Of a stretch of 33,049 nt of DNA, positions 4,637 through 32,933 are shown in pieces. A model generated the notes under the pieces. It had not been told where the DNA came from and searched no databases. It saw only the letters and a program-made list of their open reading frames with translations. The stretch is from the NCBI GenBank assembly GCA_027075555.1, contig JALTAZ010000124.1:1-33049 (forward strand), read 5' to 3'. Numbering within the stretch: position 1 is the first letter of the stretch; every line of letters begins with the position of its first letter. The stretch is from Micavibrio sp. Lineage in GTDB: Bacteria > Pseudomonadota > Alphaproteobacteria > Micavibrionales > Micavibrionaceae. A program made the position numbers and the translations under genes.

Positions 4637-5686
4637 ATGGCTAATCAGAAAAAGAATTTTTTAGAGGTTTTGAAAAAACATAAGCCTGATCATATACCTT
4701 TTTGGTTTATGCGCCAAGCTGGACGTTATTTACCAGAATATATGGAGCTTCGTAAACAAGCAGGAGGTTTTTTAGATATGGCTTATAATCCTGATATAGC
4801 TAGTGAAATTACTATGCAGCCAATCAGGCGTTTTGGTATGGACGCAGCGATTATATTTTCTGATATTTTGGTTATTCCTCATGCGCTAGGGCAGCATTTA
4901 GAGTTTGTACAAGGTAAGGGACCAAAACTTAATCCTTTGCGAGGTTCGTCTGATTTTTCTGTTTTGAATTTTTCAAAGTTTCAGCAAATTCTTAGTCCTG
5001 TTCACGAAGCAATATCGCTTACAAAAACTTCATTAAAAAAAGAAGGATTTGAATCAACTGCTTTAATTGGTTTTTGTGGCGCTCCTTGGACGGTTGCTTG
5101 TTACATGGTTGAAGGCGGCGGAAGTCGTGATTTTATTAATGTTAAAAAGCTTGCCTTTCAAGATGAAAAAGCCTTTTCAGAATTGATTGAAATTTTGGTG
5201 GAATCCAGTGCGCAATATCTGATTGATCAAATTAACGCAGGGGTCGAAGCAGTTCAAATTTTCGATAGTTGGGCAGGGGCTTTGGATGCGCAGAGCTTTC
5301 ATAAGTGGGTAGTAAATCCAACGCGCCAAATTGTTAATCTGGTAAGAAGCCAACATCCTGATATTCCAATTATTGGCTTTCCAAGATGCGCTGGTCAAAA
5401 TTATTTATCCTATGTACAAAATACAGGGGTAAGTGCAATTAGTATTGATCAAAATATTGATACAAAATGGGCTGCTAATAGTTTGCAATCATTTGTTCCT
5501 GTTCAAGGAAACCTTGATCCTATTTGTTTACTAACAGGTGGTGATTCCATGGTAATGGCAGTTGAAAAAATTATTGGAGATTTAAAAGATGGCGGTTTTA
5601 TATTTAATATTGGGCACGGAATTCATAAGCAAACCCCTGTAGAGCATGTAGAAAAGCTTTGCGCTTTAATTAGGGAATATTCTTAA
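4637..5686 (+). CDS. hemE: uroporphyrinogen decarboxylase
   Basis: Removes four acetate carboxyls from uroporphyrinogen III to give coproporphyrinogen III in heme synthesis; cytoplasmic. The 349 aa match the usual length. The signature PFWFMRQAGRYLPEY lies near residues 21-35, and IIFSDILVIPHALG (with the catalytic Asp) near 76-89. GFCGAPWTVACYMVEG and the C-terminal FNIGHGIHKQTPVEHV are also typical. The ATG at 4637 fits the conserved N-terminus. hemH follows after one base, so the two are co-transcribed and probably translationally coupled. Confidence 0.98.
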   Translation: MANQKKNFLEVLKKHKPDHIPFWFMRQAGRYLPEYMELRKQAGGFLDMAYNPDIASEITMQPIRRFGMDAAIIFSDILVIPHALGQHLEFVQGKGPKLNPLRGSSDFSVLNFSKFQQILSPVHEAISLTKTSLKKEGFESTALIGFCGAPWTVACYMVEGGGSRDFINVKKLAFQDEKAFSELIEILVESSAQYLIDQINAGVEAVQIFDSWAGALDAQSFHKWVVNPTRQIVNLVRSQHPDIPIIGFPRCAGQNYLSYVQNTGVSAISIDQNIDTKWAANSLQSFVPVQGNLDPICLLTGGDSMVMAVEKIIGDLKDGGFIFNIGHGIHKQTPVEHVEKLCALIREYS

Positions 5687-5687
5687 A

Positions 5688-6764
5688 ATGGGCAAAAAAA
5701 TTGCGGTAGTTTTATTTAATTTAGGAGGACCTGATAGCAAGGAATCTATAAAACCGTTTTTACTGAACTTCTTTATGGATAAGAATATAATAAGTTTGCC
5801 GATATTTTTACGGTTTTTTATCGCTCATATGATTTCAAGAAAAAGATCAAAGCATGAAGCAGGGGATTCTTATGGCTTATTAGGTGATAAATCACCATTA
5901 TTAGAAAATACTATAGAGCAGGTCAAAAATCTTGAAGAAAAACTAAATTATGAATTTTTTGAAAACACTTACAAGGTTTTTGTATGTATGCGTTATTGGC
6001 ATCCTATGAGCGCACAAATAGTAAAAGAGGTTAAAGAATGGAAAGCAGATAAAATTGTTTTATTGCCCCTATATCCGCAATTTTCGACCACTACTACTTG
6101 GTCATCATTACAGCAATGGAAAAAACAATCTACCAAATTAGGGATAGACATACAGACCTCTATGATATGTTGTTATCCTGAAAATAAGGGATATGTTGAA
6201 GGATCTGCCAAGAATATTTTAGAGCAATATAAAAGGGCAAAAAAAGATGGTTATGATAAAGTGCGGATTTTATTTTCTGCTCATGGGTTGCCTGAAAAAG
6301 TTATTAATGGCGGTGATCCTTATCAATATCAATGTGAAAATTCAGCAATATCAATAGTAAAGCGTTTAGAAAAAGAAATAGATAATGTTGATTGGCAGAT
6401 TTGCTATCAAAGCAAAGTAGGGCGTTTAAAATGGATTGAACCATCAATTGAGCAAGCTCTTGATAGAGCCGCTAATCATAATAGTTGCGTTATTATTTAT
6501 CCTCATGCTTTTACACAAGAGCATGTAGAAACTTTAGTAGAGCTTGATATTGAATATAAAAAATATGCTAAAGAAAAAGGGATTAAAGGCTATTATCGTG
6601 CCCAAACTCTTGGCATACAAAGTGATTTTATTGATGCTCTTGCGGATATGGTTAGGCAATGCGAAGCTCAAAAAGATATTATTTCTGATAATAATTTTTC
6701 ATGTCCTAAAGAATTTGGGCGTTGTTGTAAAAAAACTTTAACCCCAAATTATCCAACCAAGTAA
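5688..6764 (+). CDS. hemH: ferrochelatase
   Basis: Inserts Fe2+ into protoporphyrin IX, the last step of protoheme synthesis. The protein is about 358 aa. It has the N-terminal VVLFNLGGPDS, the metal/proton-handling His of SAHGLPEKV (about H199) and the HAFTQEHVETLVELDIEY segment with the catalytic Glu (about E280). Its C-terminus carries three clustered Cys (SCPKEFGRCC). Some alphaproteobacterial ferrochelatases bind a C-terminal [2Fe-2S] cluster, and this could be such a site, but the spacing is not one I can confirm. It starts one base after hemE. Its 3' end overlaps a small antisense ORF by 27 bases. Confidence 0.97.
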   Translation: MGKKIAVVLFNLGGPDSKESIKPFLLNFFMDKNIISLPIFLRFFIAHMISRKRSKHEAGDSYGLLGDKSPLLENTIEQVKNLEEKLNYEFFENTYKVFVCMRYWHPMSAQIVKEVKEWKADKIVLLPLYPQFSTTTTWSSLQQWKKQSTKLGIDIQTSMICCYPENKGYVEGSAKNILEQYKRAKKDGYDKVRILFSAHGLPEKVINGGDPYQYQCENSAISIVKRLEKEIDNVDWQICYQSKVGRLKWIEPSIEQALDRAANHNSCVIIYPHAFTQEHVETLVELDIEYKKYAKEKGIKGYYRAQTLGIQSDFIDALADMVRQCEAQKDIISDNNFSCPKEFGRCCKKTLTPNYPTK

Positions 6765-6836
6765 GAGTCCTATTATAAATCCAGAAAATGCACAGGCCGA
6801 ATACATAATAATAAAAATAGATTTATCTTCGTTCAC
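6738..6836 (-). CDS. small hydrophobic membrane peptide (32 aa), GTG start
   Basis: Not a family I recognise. A short charged N-terminus (MNEDKS) is followed by one long hydrophobic stretch (FIIMYSACAFSGFIIGLLL) ending in WIIWG, so it should be a single-span inner-membrane peptide. A perfect AGGAGG lies 8 bases before the GTG, which is the main reason to call it. Its last 27 bases overlap the 3' end of convergent hemH. Upstream lie about 180 bases of strongly structured leader (see 6849-7018). The same frame stays open further upstream to a TGA at 6918-6920, so it may instead be the end of a longer broken gene. Possible roles are a type I toxin-like peptide or a small subunit of a membrane complex; both are inference. 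Confidence 0.5.
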   Translation of the reverse strand: MNEDKSIFIIMYSACAFSGFIIGLLLGWIIWG

Positions 6837-7119
6837 AGAACTCTCCTCCTTTGGTGATCGGGGAGTTAACAAGCCCGCAATTAGAAGAGCCGCAATAATC
6901 TTTAGAATTACATTAAGTCACACGAAATATAATCCCTGGACATACATTATTGCCTCCCCGACCAAAGTCGAGGAGTGTGGTAACGGCACACAAAACCGCT
7001 AATTGCATGGGTTGTTAAGCCCAATTTAGAGACTATAGAAATTGTTTCATATGAACAAGTCTAATCTACTAATATCATAAACTTTGTTTAGTTAGCTAAT
7101 ATATGTTCTGTTTAAGTAA
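6765..7119. other. 355-bp region between hemH and the phosphatase gene
   Basis: Apart from the 5' two-thirds of the small ORF at 6738-6836 it holds no confident gene. About 170 bases (6849-7018) are unusually rich in inverted repeats. Two further short frames on the minus strand exist: one from an ATG at 6947 with GGGGAGG upstream that stops after 9 codons, and one of 31 codons starting near 7008. I treat them as possible leader peptides or chance. The remaining AT-rich part next to the phosphatase gene shows nothing I can name. Confidence 0.5.
6849..7018 (-). ncRNA. candidate structured leader RNA with competing helices
   Basis: Several complementary pairs are seen directly. A: 6849-6865 (CTTTGGT, 3-base bulge, CGGGGAG) with 6954-6967 (CTCCCCGACCAAAG). 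B: 6866-6884 (TTAACAA, GCAATTAG) with 6999-7018 (CTAATTGC, TTGTTAA). C: 6892-6899 (GCAATAAT) with 6946-6953. There are also two local hairpins: 6954-6975 (9-bp stem, 4-base loop) and 6975-6991 (GTGTG/CACAC). The 6954-6975 hairpin competes with helix A, and B crosses A, so the RNA could switch or form a pseudoknot. On the minus strand one arm of A lies directly before the AGGAGG of the small ORF. I match it to no known RNA family. Confidence 0.5.
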
Positions 7120-15798: not shown

Positions 15799-16788
15799 TT
15801 ATCCTCCTATAGATGCTAGATGCTCACGCACACCGCTATTATTATCATGCAGAAAATGAGCCTCTACCTTAAATTTCATCAATGTTAATATTTTATCTTG
15901 TAATTCTTCAATTTGATCATCGCTTTGCAAAAGGTGACGCAGCAAATAGCCACCCTCTCCAAACAAACATAAATGCAAAGCCCCTTTTGCAGATACGCGC
16001 AAGCGGTTACAGCTTTTACAAAAATCTTTGGAATATGGGGCGATAATGCCAATAGTGCCTTTGCAGTTATTATTGATATATTCTTGGGCTGGTCCTGCAT
16101 CGATTGCTCGATTTTTCTTTTTCCAGCCCCGCGCCAATAATCTTTCCACAACCGCCGCTCCTGACAAATGGTGAGTATTAAAATAATCCTGATTATCAAG
16201 GGTACGCATCAATTCTATAAAGCGCAAAGATATGGGTTTATCAGTAACAAAATCAATGAAATTATCCAGTTCTTTATCATTTAGTCCTTTTAGTAAAACT
16301 GTATTAAGTTTTACTGTTTCAAAGCCAGCATAAAGGCAGGCGTCAATTCCTTTTAATAATTCGTTAAGGCGCGAATGCCCCGTTATATTTTTAAATTGTT
16401 CAGGATTTAAAGAATCTACACTGATATTTATTGATCTAAGCCCTGCATTGTAATAGCTATTTGCTCTATCGGGGAGTTTATATCCATTGGTGGTAAAGCT
16501 TAGTTTTTTAATGGCTTGAATTTCATTTATACTAGAAACAATATCTATAAAATCTTTGCGAATTGTTGGCTCCCCTCCTGTTAGGCGTATTTTCCACGTT
16601 CCCAGCCCTGCAAAGGCTTTTGCAAGCCTGATAATTTCATCTTTATTCATAAATTTGTTATGTTGGCTTTTTCTATAGCCATCAGGCAAGCAGTAAGTGC
16701 ATCTATAATTGCAAATATCTGTTATAGATAATCTAAGATAAGGGAATGTACGACCAAAGCTGTCTGCTATTGCAGTTTTATTATCCAC
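15799..16788 (-). CDS. moaA: GTP 3',8-cyclase MoaA
   Basis: Radical SAM enzyme that turns GTP into 3',8-cyclo-GTP, the first step of Moco synthesis. It is 329 aa. The SAM-cluster motif C-x3-C-x2-C is at C26, C30 and C33 (TDICNYRCTYC), the substrate-side cluster Cys are C257, C260 and C274, and the chain ends in the Gly-Gly required for activity. It starts with GTG at 16788, set by AGGAG 9 bases upstream and by the conserved DSFGRTFPYLRLSITD. It is the first gene of the moa operon and is preceded by a candidate Moco riboswitch and an FNR box. Confidence 0.97.
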   Translation of the reverse strand: MDNKTAIADSFGRTFPYLRLSITDICNYRCTYCLPDGYRKSQHNKFMNKDEIIRLAKAFAGLGTWKIRLTGGEPTIRKDFIDIVSSINEIQAIKKLSFTTNGYKLPDRANSYYNAGLRSINISVDSLNPEQFKNITGHSRLNELLKGIDACLYAGFETVKLNTVLLKGLNDKELDNFIDFVTDKPISLRFIELMRTLDNQDYFNTHHLSGAAVVERLLARGWKKKNRAIDAGPAQEYINNNCKGTIGIIAPYSKDFCKSCNRLRVSAKGALHLCLFGEGGYLLRHLLQSDDQIEELQDKILTLMKFKVEAHFLHDNNSGVREHLASIGG

Positions 16789-16796
16789 CTATTTTA

Positions 16797-16896
16797 CTCC
16801 TTTGCAAGCACGGCAGGCTATGATGTTTCCATACATAACCCCGGTTCATCTTCCATATCTTCTTGCAAAGAAGACTTAGGGCTAGAGAACTCGGAG
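16797..16896 (-). promoter_or_regulatory. candidate Moco riboswitch in the moaA leader
   Basis: On the minus strand the leader holds CCTAAG (+ positions 16875-16880) and TATGG (16853-16857), separated by a perfect 7-bp hairpin (TCTTCTT/AAGAAGA, 16858-16874). Together these make a complete 11-nt GAAA tetraloop receptor. Next comes a hairpin (16816-16840) with stems GGTTATG/CATAGCC and ATG/CAT capped by GAAA. CTCC (16893-16896) can pair with GGAG (16797-16800), the moaA Shine-Dalgarno. A tetraloop plus receptor is, as I recall, a feature of the Moco RNA motif. Placement before moaA agrees. I could not align it to the full consensus. Confidence 0.72.
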
Positions 16897-16929
16897 ATTT
16901 TTACCTTCTCATAAAAAGGTTCTAAAGCT

Positions 16930-32549: not shown

Positions 32550-32933
32550 ATGTACTCAGACCCTAAGGGGTTAACCTCTGTTTCTCCTACTTATACTCCT
32601 AGAATTCCTAGGTCTGTTGGTGTTGGCACTGCGATAGGTAGCGCTACGGTTAATCTACGCTTCGCGGGGCAGTACAGCGGCTTACATTACAACTGGAACC
32701 GCTATTACGACCCAACCACAGGGCGTTATATTACCAGTGATCCTATAGGGCTTGCTGGTGGTTTAAACACCTACGGCTATGCGCTCGCTAATCCTGTGAT
32801 GTTTATCGACCCCGAAGGGTTGAAAAGCTTAACGGCTGATCCCAGGGTCAGGATACCTGCCGCTGTAGGAACTGCTGTTTGCAAGGCATGGCCTGCTTGT
32901 ACGAAAACCTTGGTGGATAAATGTTTAACGTGA
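32550..32933 (+). pseudogene. orphan RHS-repeat core fragment
   Basis: 127 codons with the RHS-associated core signature: [37 protein letters not shown], then [20 protein letters not shown]. About four residues usually present between GQY and GLHYN are missing. Full RHS proteins are over 1,000 aa, with a variable toxin tip after the core. Here only the end of the core and about 36 residues of tip remain, with three Cys but no toxin domain I know. Local GC content is higher than in neighbouring genes, a sign of transfer. It is probably a decayed or displaced C-terminal piece rather than a working toxin. Confidence 0.75.

What the first reader, a model, noticed from the sequence alone, without database searches (positions are those of the whole stretch)
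6738..7018. Unassigned structured leader RNA before a 32-aa membrane peptide
Seen: three long-range complementary pairs plus two local hairpins lie in about 170 bases. One strong hairpin (6954-6975) excludes the longest long-range helix (6849-6865 with 6954-6967), and a second long-range helix crosses it. The downstream ORF has a perfect AGGAGG and codes for one hydrophobic helix. Inference: a switch-like leader or pseudoknot controls translation, as in type I toxin mRNAs or riboswitches. It matches no RNA family I know.
Basis: partly seen in the sequence, partly recalled or inferred. Interest (0 to 1): 0.68.

Follow-up and report, generated by a model that had tools for sequence, protein, structure and literature searches.

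The report
Pseudoknot RNA switch, extended sRNA-Xcc1 relative
The stretch before a tiny membrane-peptide gene is a real, elaborately knotted RNA that sits in front of many unrelated genes in bacteria and probably switches them on and off, and a published 'small RNA' of plant-associated bacteria appears to be only its second half.

Summary
Window 7023-6852 (minus strand) is one copy of a structured RNA of about 150-170 nt. A covariance model from 47 copies finds it in 103 of 142 genomes of the same order and 54 of 385 of the class, up to 10 copies per genome. Its pseudoknots and alternative helices covary.

Neighbouring strands compete: strand 2 pairs with strand 1 (hairpin P5) or with strand 3 (10 bp); strand 3 can also cover the Shine-Dalgarno region (as here) or start an intrinsic terminator (62 of 161 copies). 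A same-strand gene start with SD follows within 70 nt in 121 of 153 copies against 7 of 153 in a mirror control. The genes differ. This is the layout of a riboswitch-like cis leader.

It has a family. Rfam RF02221 (sRNA-Xcc1, published as an integron-borne trans-acting sRNA) looks like the 3' half of the same RNA: sub-threshold hits both ways, and the 5' domain lies upstream of most RF02221 loci examined. The peptide also occurs without the RNA, so this is not a type I toxin system. Trigger and polarity are unknown.

The parts
6852..7023 (-). Whole structured RNA (model R2 match, positions 1-156 of 156)
   Evidence: R2 120 bits, E 6.3e-25, the only match in the own genome; the window copy was among the 47 that built the model
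7008..7023 (-). P1 hairpin UGGG/CCCA (7020-7023 with 7008-7011)
   Evidence: Stem covaries across 101 copies, partner-swap z 8.3 (P1 not in the model)
7012..7018 (-). PK1 5' strand: P1 loop UUAACAA, pairs with 6866-6872
   Evidence: z 24.9 against swapped partners (this helix was in the model)
6999..7007 (-). P2 5' strand, pairs with 6876-6884
   Evidence: Coordinates; P2 is in model R2; P2 also seen in RF02221 loci, z 7.7
6984..6998 (-). P3 hairpin CGGU/GCCG; its loop GUGU (6988-6991) pairs with ACAC (6975-6978) = PK2
   Evidence: PK2 partner-swap z 16.6 (not in the model)
6967..6975 (-). Strand 1 (CUCCUCGAC), 5' arm of P5; also complementary to the SD region
   Evidence: 1:2 z 9.2; -16.3 kcal/mol hairpin
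6954..6963 (-). Strand 2 (GGUCGGGGAG): pairs with strand 1 (P5) or strand 3
   Evidence: 2:3 z 11.2, not in the model
6946..6953 (-). P6 5' strand GCAAUAAU, pairs with 6892-6899
   Evidence: In model R2; compensatory changes visible among the first four copies
6900..6945 (-). P6/P7 internal loop GUAUGUCCA (6937-6945) / UAAAG (6900-6904) with the variable P7 hairpin between; most conserved unpaired nucleotides, candidate binding pocket
   Evidence: AU of AUGU 100% and AAAG 94-100% weighted conservation over 102 aligned copies
6866..6884 (-). P2 3' strand (6876-6884) and PK1 3' strand UUGUUAA (6866-6872)
6856..6865 (-). Strand 3 (CUCCCCGAUC): pairs with strand 2, or with the SD region; in many relatives its 3' end begins the 5' arm of an intrinsic terminator
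6841..6850 (-). Strand 4: Shine-Dalgarno region AGGAGGAGAG
   Evidence: sequence; duplex 3:4 -9.0 and 1:4 -10.9 kcal/mol
6738..6836 (-). ORF for the 32-aa single-span membrane peptide (GTG start)
   Evidence: Family with 10 strong places in 135 genomes; 6-member alignment A9, 44-71% identity to the window peptide

Best explanation
It is a cis-acting, riboswitch-like 5' leader of an extended sRNA-Xcc1 superfamily. Shown by sequence comparison: P1, the PK1 loop helix, P2, P3 with PK2, and a P6/P7 arm with a nearly invariant internal loop; strand 2 can pair with strand 1 (P5) or with strand 3; strand 3 overlaps the translation start region or a terminator; a gene start with SD usually follows on the same strand. 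Inferred: when the core folds with 2:3 paired, strand 3 is kept from the SD (this copy and similar ones) or from the terminator (many relatives), so the downstream gene is ON; when strand 2 is captured by strand 1, strand 3 blocks the SD or seeds the terminator, so the gene is OFF. The trigger is most likely a small ligand bound near the conserved internal loop, but it is unknown. In the window the regulated gene is a 32-aa membrane peptide; across relatives it is a varied set of accessory genes, enriched for proteins with an N-terminal hydrophobic segment.
For: Copies in 103/142, 54/385 and 34/299 genomes (order, class and phylum samples, own genome counted in each); 0 of 8 genomes outside Alphaproteobacteria used as controls had a match, while the 1 alphaproteobacterial genome in the same call did. 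Covariation with partner-swap z 8-25, negative control -0.3. 2:3 is kept, read by eye, where strand 1 is missing or different (L139-L143). Terminator-like hairpin plus U-tract in 65 of 161 copies against 4.8 in mononucleotide shuffles; in 62 of them the 5' arm starts at or before the end of strand 3. ORF of at least 60 aa with SD starting within 70 nt after the RNA in 121 of 153 copies against 7 of 153 in the mirror control. -10-like box ending 25-34 nt upstream of P1 in 50 of 159 copies against 17.8 in shuffles. N-terminal hydrophobic segment in 68/146 downstream proteins against 36/395 other ORFs, p 1.7e-20. Copies within one genome are nearly as divergent as between genomes (63.7% v 59.7% identity, 30 copies of 6 genomes), as for old paralogous regulators. 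Link to RF02221.
Against: No ligand, transcript or translation data. sRNA-Xcc1 is published as a ~100-nt RNA by Northern and 88 nt by RACE with predicted target genes (PMC2996969, find passages), so a separate short RNA exists at least in one species. In the window strand 1 can also cover the SD (1:4), so the polarity is not settled. The window copy has no terminator-like hairpin and no P0 hairpin. 39 of 142 genomes of the order gave no match. 15 of 161 copies were dropped from the gene list for lack of a convincing ORF. The best-scoring type of copy (L055) gave no RF02221 hit at E<=5, and 5 of 17 loci gave none at E<=1. Partner swapping ignores phylogeny; the control ORFs were called by a simple longest-ORF rule of at least 100 aa.
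Confidence: 0.74

Rival explanations
1. A free-standing trans-acting small RNA, as sRNA-Xcc1 is described, with its own terminator; the downstream gene is a neighbour.
For: Published Northern (~100 nt) and RACE (88 nt) for sRNA-Xcc1 with predicted targets (PMC2996969, find passages); treatment of seven Xylella homologues as sRNAs with predicted targets (PMC12189769, find passages); 'trans-acting' in the title of the 2011 paper (seen only in reference lists). 62 of 161 copies have a terminator-like hairpin overlapping strand 3. In 4 of 10 strong peptide places the RNA was not found.
Against: 42 of 146 listed copies have the start codon 8-24 nt after the RNA, with an SD that strand 3 can cover. 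In terminator-type copies the start lies mostly 36-62 nt after the RNA, leaving little room for a separate promoter. Strong strand bias of following genes, 121 v 7 of 153. In Xanthomonas integrons sRNA-Xcc1 itself lies upstream of symE in the same direction (PMC12444791, find passage).
Confidence: 0.14
2. A leader that responds to a protein, tRNA, ribosome or temperature rather than to a small ligand, with the same strand exchange.
For: The strand exchange 1:2 / 2:3 / 3:4 is generic to attenuators (recalled); a conserved GCGGGGGCGYACCGC hairpin sits between strands 3 and 4 in several copies and could be a protein site.
Against: Nearly invariant internal-loop nucleotides and several pseudoknots resemble ligand aptamers more than thermometers (judgement); no shared downstream family that could be an autoregulator: the most frequent Pfam family matches 9 of 146.
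Confidence: 0.2
3. A type I toxin system: leader structure limits translation of a toxic membrane peptide, with an antisense RNA.
For: The window ORF is a short hydrophobic peptide with a strong SD; hydrophobic peptides are usual in type I toxins (recalled). One RF02221 locus precedes a SymE_toxin domain protein.
Against: The same RNA precedes unrelated lipoprotein-like, regulator, nuclease and pilin-like genes; the RNA was not found upstream of 4 of 10 peptide genes. No antisense RNA was looked for.
Confidence: 0.03
4. Chance structure or a DNA-level repeat with no RNA function.
For: None found.
Against: Fold z -4.13, compensatory changes in helices not used to build the model, fixed orientation towards a gene start.
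Confidence: 0.01

Closest known systems
sRNA-Xcc1, Rfam RF02221
   Same: The closing helix (= 2:3), the P6/P7 arm with a conserved A-rich internal loop, the hairpin before strand 3; integron and plasmid surroundings in the literature; the two models find some of each other's loci.
   Different: The Rfam model has 87 positions and lacks the 5' domain (P1, PK1, P2, P3, PK2, strand 1); the window copy does not reach the cut-off (53 bits) nor E<=5; the family is described as a trans-acting sRNA, here a cis leader is proposed.
GEMM/c-di-GMP class of riboswitches (recalled comparison)
   Same: Many copies per genome in front of unrelated accessory and envelope genes; transcriptional and translational platforms.
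   Different: No Rfam match to these families in the window or in 12 loci; different fold; ligand unknown.
Attenuator-type leaders with 1:2, 2:3, 3:4 pairing (recalled)
   Same: Competing neighbouring strands decide termination or SD access.
   Different: No leader peptide was noticed (not searched for systematically); the core is a multi-pseudoknot fold.

Membership tests
sRNA-Xcc1 (RF02221) | Covariance-model score at or above the gathering score of 53 bits | tested here: not met
   Window: no hit. 12 of 17 loci with the RNA match at E<=1 with 28-40 bits, none over 53, 5 without a match.
sRNA-Xcc1 (RF02221) | Homologous structure: closing helix, P6/P7 arm, hairpin before strand 3, in register | tested here: met
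   Alignments. Reciprocal: model R2, built without RF02221 loci, finds 9 of 30 RF02221 loci at E<=0.01 and 11 at E<=1. Of the 30 loci 28 were examined for the 5' domain: P1-loop:PK1 z 12.3, at least 7 paired bases in 24 of 28, weak or short in L260, L268, L276, L277; P2 z 7.7.
sRNA-Xcc1 (RF02221) | Expression as a separate ~88-100 nt RNA | not testable with these tools
   Published for Xanthomonas (PMC2996969, find passages); no RNA data for this organism.
riboswitch | Conserved aptamer-like core in front of genes, on the sense strand | tested here: met
riboswitch | Expression platform that is mutually exclusive with a core helix | tested here: met
   Strand 3 shared by 2:3 and by a terminator or the SD region; by sequence only
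riboswitch | Direct binding of a small ligand | not testable with these tools
   no binding data
type I toxin-antitoxin | RNA specific to a toxin gene | tested here: not met
   RNA precedes many unrelated genes; not found upstream of 4 of 10 strong peptide places
type I toxin-antitoxin | Antisense RNA antitoxin | not tested
   no search for an antisense transcript was made

The most novel reading that the evidence does not exclude
RF02221 and its alphaproteobacterial relatives together are an orphan riboswitch class found in at least two classes of one phylum and on plasmids, phage-like contigs and (by the literature) integron cassettes, by which horizontally moving accessory genes read a common cellular signal; 'sRNA-Xcc1' is the processed or separately seen 3' half of such a leader.
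Probability: 0.45. Interest if true: 0.87.

Novelty: new variant of a known kind. Interest (0 to 1): 0.72.

Why it matters
A family filed as an 87-position sRNA appears to be half of a larger, pseudoknotted cis switch with terminator and SD platforms. That would change how RF02221 is searched and annotated, would fit its position before symE and, in the loci seen here, before phage antirepressor-type genes, and gives a concrete orphan-riboswitch candidate with copies in several cultured genera (for example Caulobacter, Tardiphaga, Ancylobacter, Methylocapsa; record titles).

Tried and rejected
Type I toxin reading: rejected because the RNA is not tied to the peptide. A tRNA-like reading of strand 3 plus ACCA (it looks like an acceptor end): dropped because exact CACCA is present in 115 of 161 tails and missing in several divergent copies. 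Recent amplification of copies: not supported. Link to anti-phage defence: weak; in the 25 of 63 PADLOC families shown, UzuA matched 2 of 146, PDC-S11 2 to 4, PtuB 2, and RmrA/HTH models up to 9, which look like generic HTH hits. Phage records (INPHARED): no blastn match with one query copy. Model R1 was built with a placeholder structure of five pairs and not used. Rfam on 12 loci at gathering thresholds gave only two tRNAs. Literature: searches; nothing seen in their listings or in the passages read describes this full-length RNA or calls sRNA-Xcc1 a cis leader. Find passages were read of PMC11109978, PMC2996969, PMC12444791, PMC8876359 (where sRNA-Xcc1 showed only in the reference list) and PMC12189769; other papers were seen in listings with the start of the abstract only. 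The 2011 RNA Biology paper on sRNA-Xcc1 is not held; I know its title from reference lists.

Full report
OBSERVATION. The 281-nt stretch folds at -84.2 kcal/mol against -67.0 (sd 4.2) for shuffles, z -4.13, 0 of 200 as good. Rfam finds nothing in it at its cut-offs, and at E<=5 only one chance match on the other strand.

RELATIVES. Blastn in 58 genomes (the own one and relatives) gave three copies besides the window: two in the same genus in front of related peptides, one in another family in front of an unrelated secreted-looking protein. Their alignment shows compensatory changes. A pattern of 21 fixed bases then found 6 viral contigs and 54 genome contigs. Nine of the 54 lack the rest of the structure and are chance (L018, L019, L025, L031, L043, L045, L056, L057, L061); 45 are copies, some cut by contig ends, L035 broken, and three of them the same places. 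Forty-two of the 45 are titled as Alphaproteobacteria or taxa of it, three only as proteobacteria (my reading of the titles). A covariance model (R2, 38 pairs) from 47 copies finds one copy in this genome, and matches in 103 of 142 genomes of the order, 54 of 385 of the class and 34 of 299 of the phylum, 21 of these 34 outside the class. E-values of R2 are rough (short calibration). As a control, 8 genomes outside Alphaproteobacteria gave none, and the one alphaproteobacterial genome in the same call gave one. Six genomes chosen for many copies held 6 to 10. Blastn with one copy found 7 plasmid records (Shinella 3, Paracoccus 2, Bosea, Singulisphaera); R2 confirms the four that were fetched. 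INPHARED phages did not match that query.

STRUCTURE. From 5' to 3': P1 hairpin, whose loop pairs about 140 nt downstream (PK1); P2; P3, whose loop pairs with the following linker (PK2); strand 1; strand 2; the P6/P7 arm; the 3' strands of P2 and PK1; strand 3. Helices were tested on 101 aligned copies by comparing true partners with partners swapped between copies: P1 z 8.3, PK1 24.9, PK2 16.6, 1:2 9.2, 2:3 11.2; an unrelated pair of segments gave -0.3. P1, PK2 and 2:3 were not in the model, so the alignment was not fitted to them. The test does not correct for relatedness. The 2:3 helix is commonly 9-10 bp, changes in step (for example GGGGUG/CACCCC, CUGGGAG/CUCCCAG) and is kept in divergent copies in which strand 1 looks different (L139-L143, by eye). 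The P6/P7 internal loop is the most conserved unpaired part: AU of AUGU at 100%, AAAG at 94-100%. Upstream of P1 many copies carry a further hairpin, P0: the 24 nt before P1 fold at -9.3 kcal/mol on average against -3.6 in shuffles, and 89% reach -5 against 27% (159 copies). A two-box promoter score of 8 or more is reached by 41% against 12% of shuffles, and -10-like boxes are enriched 25-34 nt upstream (50 against 17.8). P0 is absent in the window copy.

PLATFORMS. In 161 copies a stem followed by a U-tract occurs in the 97 nt around and after strand 3 in 65, against 4.8 expected in shuffles; in 62 its 5' arm starts at or before the end of strand 3, so that it cannot coexist with the full 2:3 helix. 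In other copies, the window among them, strand 3 is followed at once by a Shine-Dalgarno sequence, often GGGGAG, the complement of CUCCCC. A third group has a hairpin GCGGGGGCGYACCGC between strand 3 and the SD. After dropping 15 copies without a convincing ORF, the 146 listed start codons lie 8 to 68 nt after the RNA: 42 at 8-24, 3 at 25-34, 101 at 35-69. These starts were picked by a score that favours SD and ATG, so a control was run: an ORF of at least 60 aa with an SD starts within 70 nt after the RNA in 121 of 153 copies, against 7 of 153 on the opposite strand before its 5' end. One core with both a terminator and an SD platform is what riboswitches show; that step is inference, as no ligand or expression was tested.

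GENES. The 146 downstream proteins are diverse: 42 Pfam families are matched at E<=0.001 over all of them, the most frequent (HTH) by 9; others include outer-membrane barrels 3, HNH 2, GIY-YIG 2, prepilin-type 2, DUF4268 2, zinc ribbons 3. An N-terminal hydrophobic segment is present in 68 of 146 against 36 of 395 other ORFs of the same loci (odds ratio 8.7; size-matched 47 of 90 against 30 of 308, 10.1). The window peptide belongs to a family with 10 strong places (E<=1.1e-13) in 135 genomes; in 6 the RNA lies upstream, in 4 (G006, G086, the second places of G009 and G011) R2 did not find it at E<=0.01.

IDENTITY. Single divergent copies searched against Rfam at relaxed thresholds gave RF02221, sRNA-Xcc1 (L150, E 0.0017, 30.3 bits), while L055 gave no RF02221 hit at E<=5. 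Of 17 loci with the RNA searched together, 12 match RF02221 at E<=1 with 28-40 bits, none over the cut-off of 53, and 5 do not match. In the alignments the Rfam closing helix is 2:3, its first arm is P6/P7 and its second hairpin lies before strand 3. RF02221 itself occurs in 57 of 398 genomes of the phylum, in 39 over the cut-off, and in none of 14 control genomes. In 28 of its 30 fetched loci (L263 and L273 left out because their match position in the locus was shifted) I looked for the missing 5' domain: the P1-loop/PK1 helix exceeds swapped partners with z 12.3, at least 7 bases pair in 24 of 28, and P2 gives z 7.7. Model R2, built without these loci, finds 9 of the 30 at E<=0.01 and 11 at E<=1. 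In whole genomes both models hit the same place in G622 contig 235 and in G256 contig 16. Of ten proteins behind RF02221 loci searched in Pfam, eight match: SymE_toxin 1, Bro-N 3 (one below its cut-off), KilA-N 1, P22_AR_N 1, Phage_pRha 2, phage antirepressor-type domains apart from SymE. sRNA-Xcc1 was described from Xanthomonas as an RNA of ~100 nt (Northern) and 88 nt (RACE) with many predicted targets (PMC2996969, find passages); a 2025 study places it upstream of symE, both turned against the cassette promoter, in the most widespread Xanthomonas integron cassette (PMC12444791, find passages); another treats seven Xylella copies as sRNAs, some of them in vesicles (PMC12189769, find passages). 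None of the passages read calls it a cis leader.

VERDICT. The finding is real. The RNA is a full-length, distant relative of RF02221 that most likely works in cis as a strand-exchange switch. The polarity (2:3 = ON) is best supported for terminator-type copies; in the window strand 1 can also cover the SD, so ON and OFF are not settled there. What it senses is unknown. It fails the RF02221 cut-off, so I file it as a variant of that family by homology, not as a member by Rfam's rule.

Noticed in passing
window 16781-16908, minus strand: Molybdenum cofactor riboswitch (RF01055, 59.6 bits) next to ORFs that look like molybdenum-cofactor genes (gene names not searched).
   Followed up: no
window 32550-32933, plus strand: ORF whose sequence reads like an Rhs-repeat core end (recalled motif, no search), at the edge of the window.
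   Followed up: no
L098-L100, L126, L127, L129-L133, L135, L181, L195-L197: A conserved hairpin GCGGGGGCGYACCGC, or close to it, between strand 3 and the SD in one group of copies; could be a second module or a protein site.
   Followed up: no
L139-L143 and RF02221 loci such as L254, L269-L271: Between P3 and strand 2 these copies carry what looks like a stem followed by a U-tract, a possible terminator inside the RNA; the Rfam model of sRNA-Xcc1 begins after it.
   Followed up: no
L036 1-139 and 1187-1339: Two copies 1.2 kb apart in Ancylobacter crimeensis, each before a prepilin-like gene.
   Followed up: no
L035 4145-4349: A copy whose 5' half through P5 is intact and then runs into other sequence; a broken copy (48 bits).
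   Followed up: no
L125 3001-3151: Shinella plasmid copy beside Tn3, ISL3, IS110 and IS3 transposase genes; no annotated sense gene begins until IS110 at 4966.
   Followed up: partly
L102, L189-L191 (genome G143): Several copies in one genome precede proteins that look like paralogues of one another.
   Followed up: no
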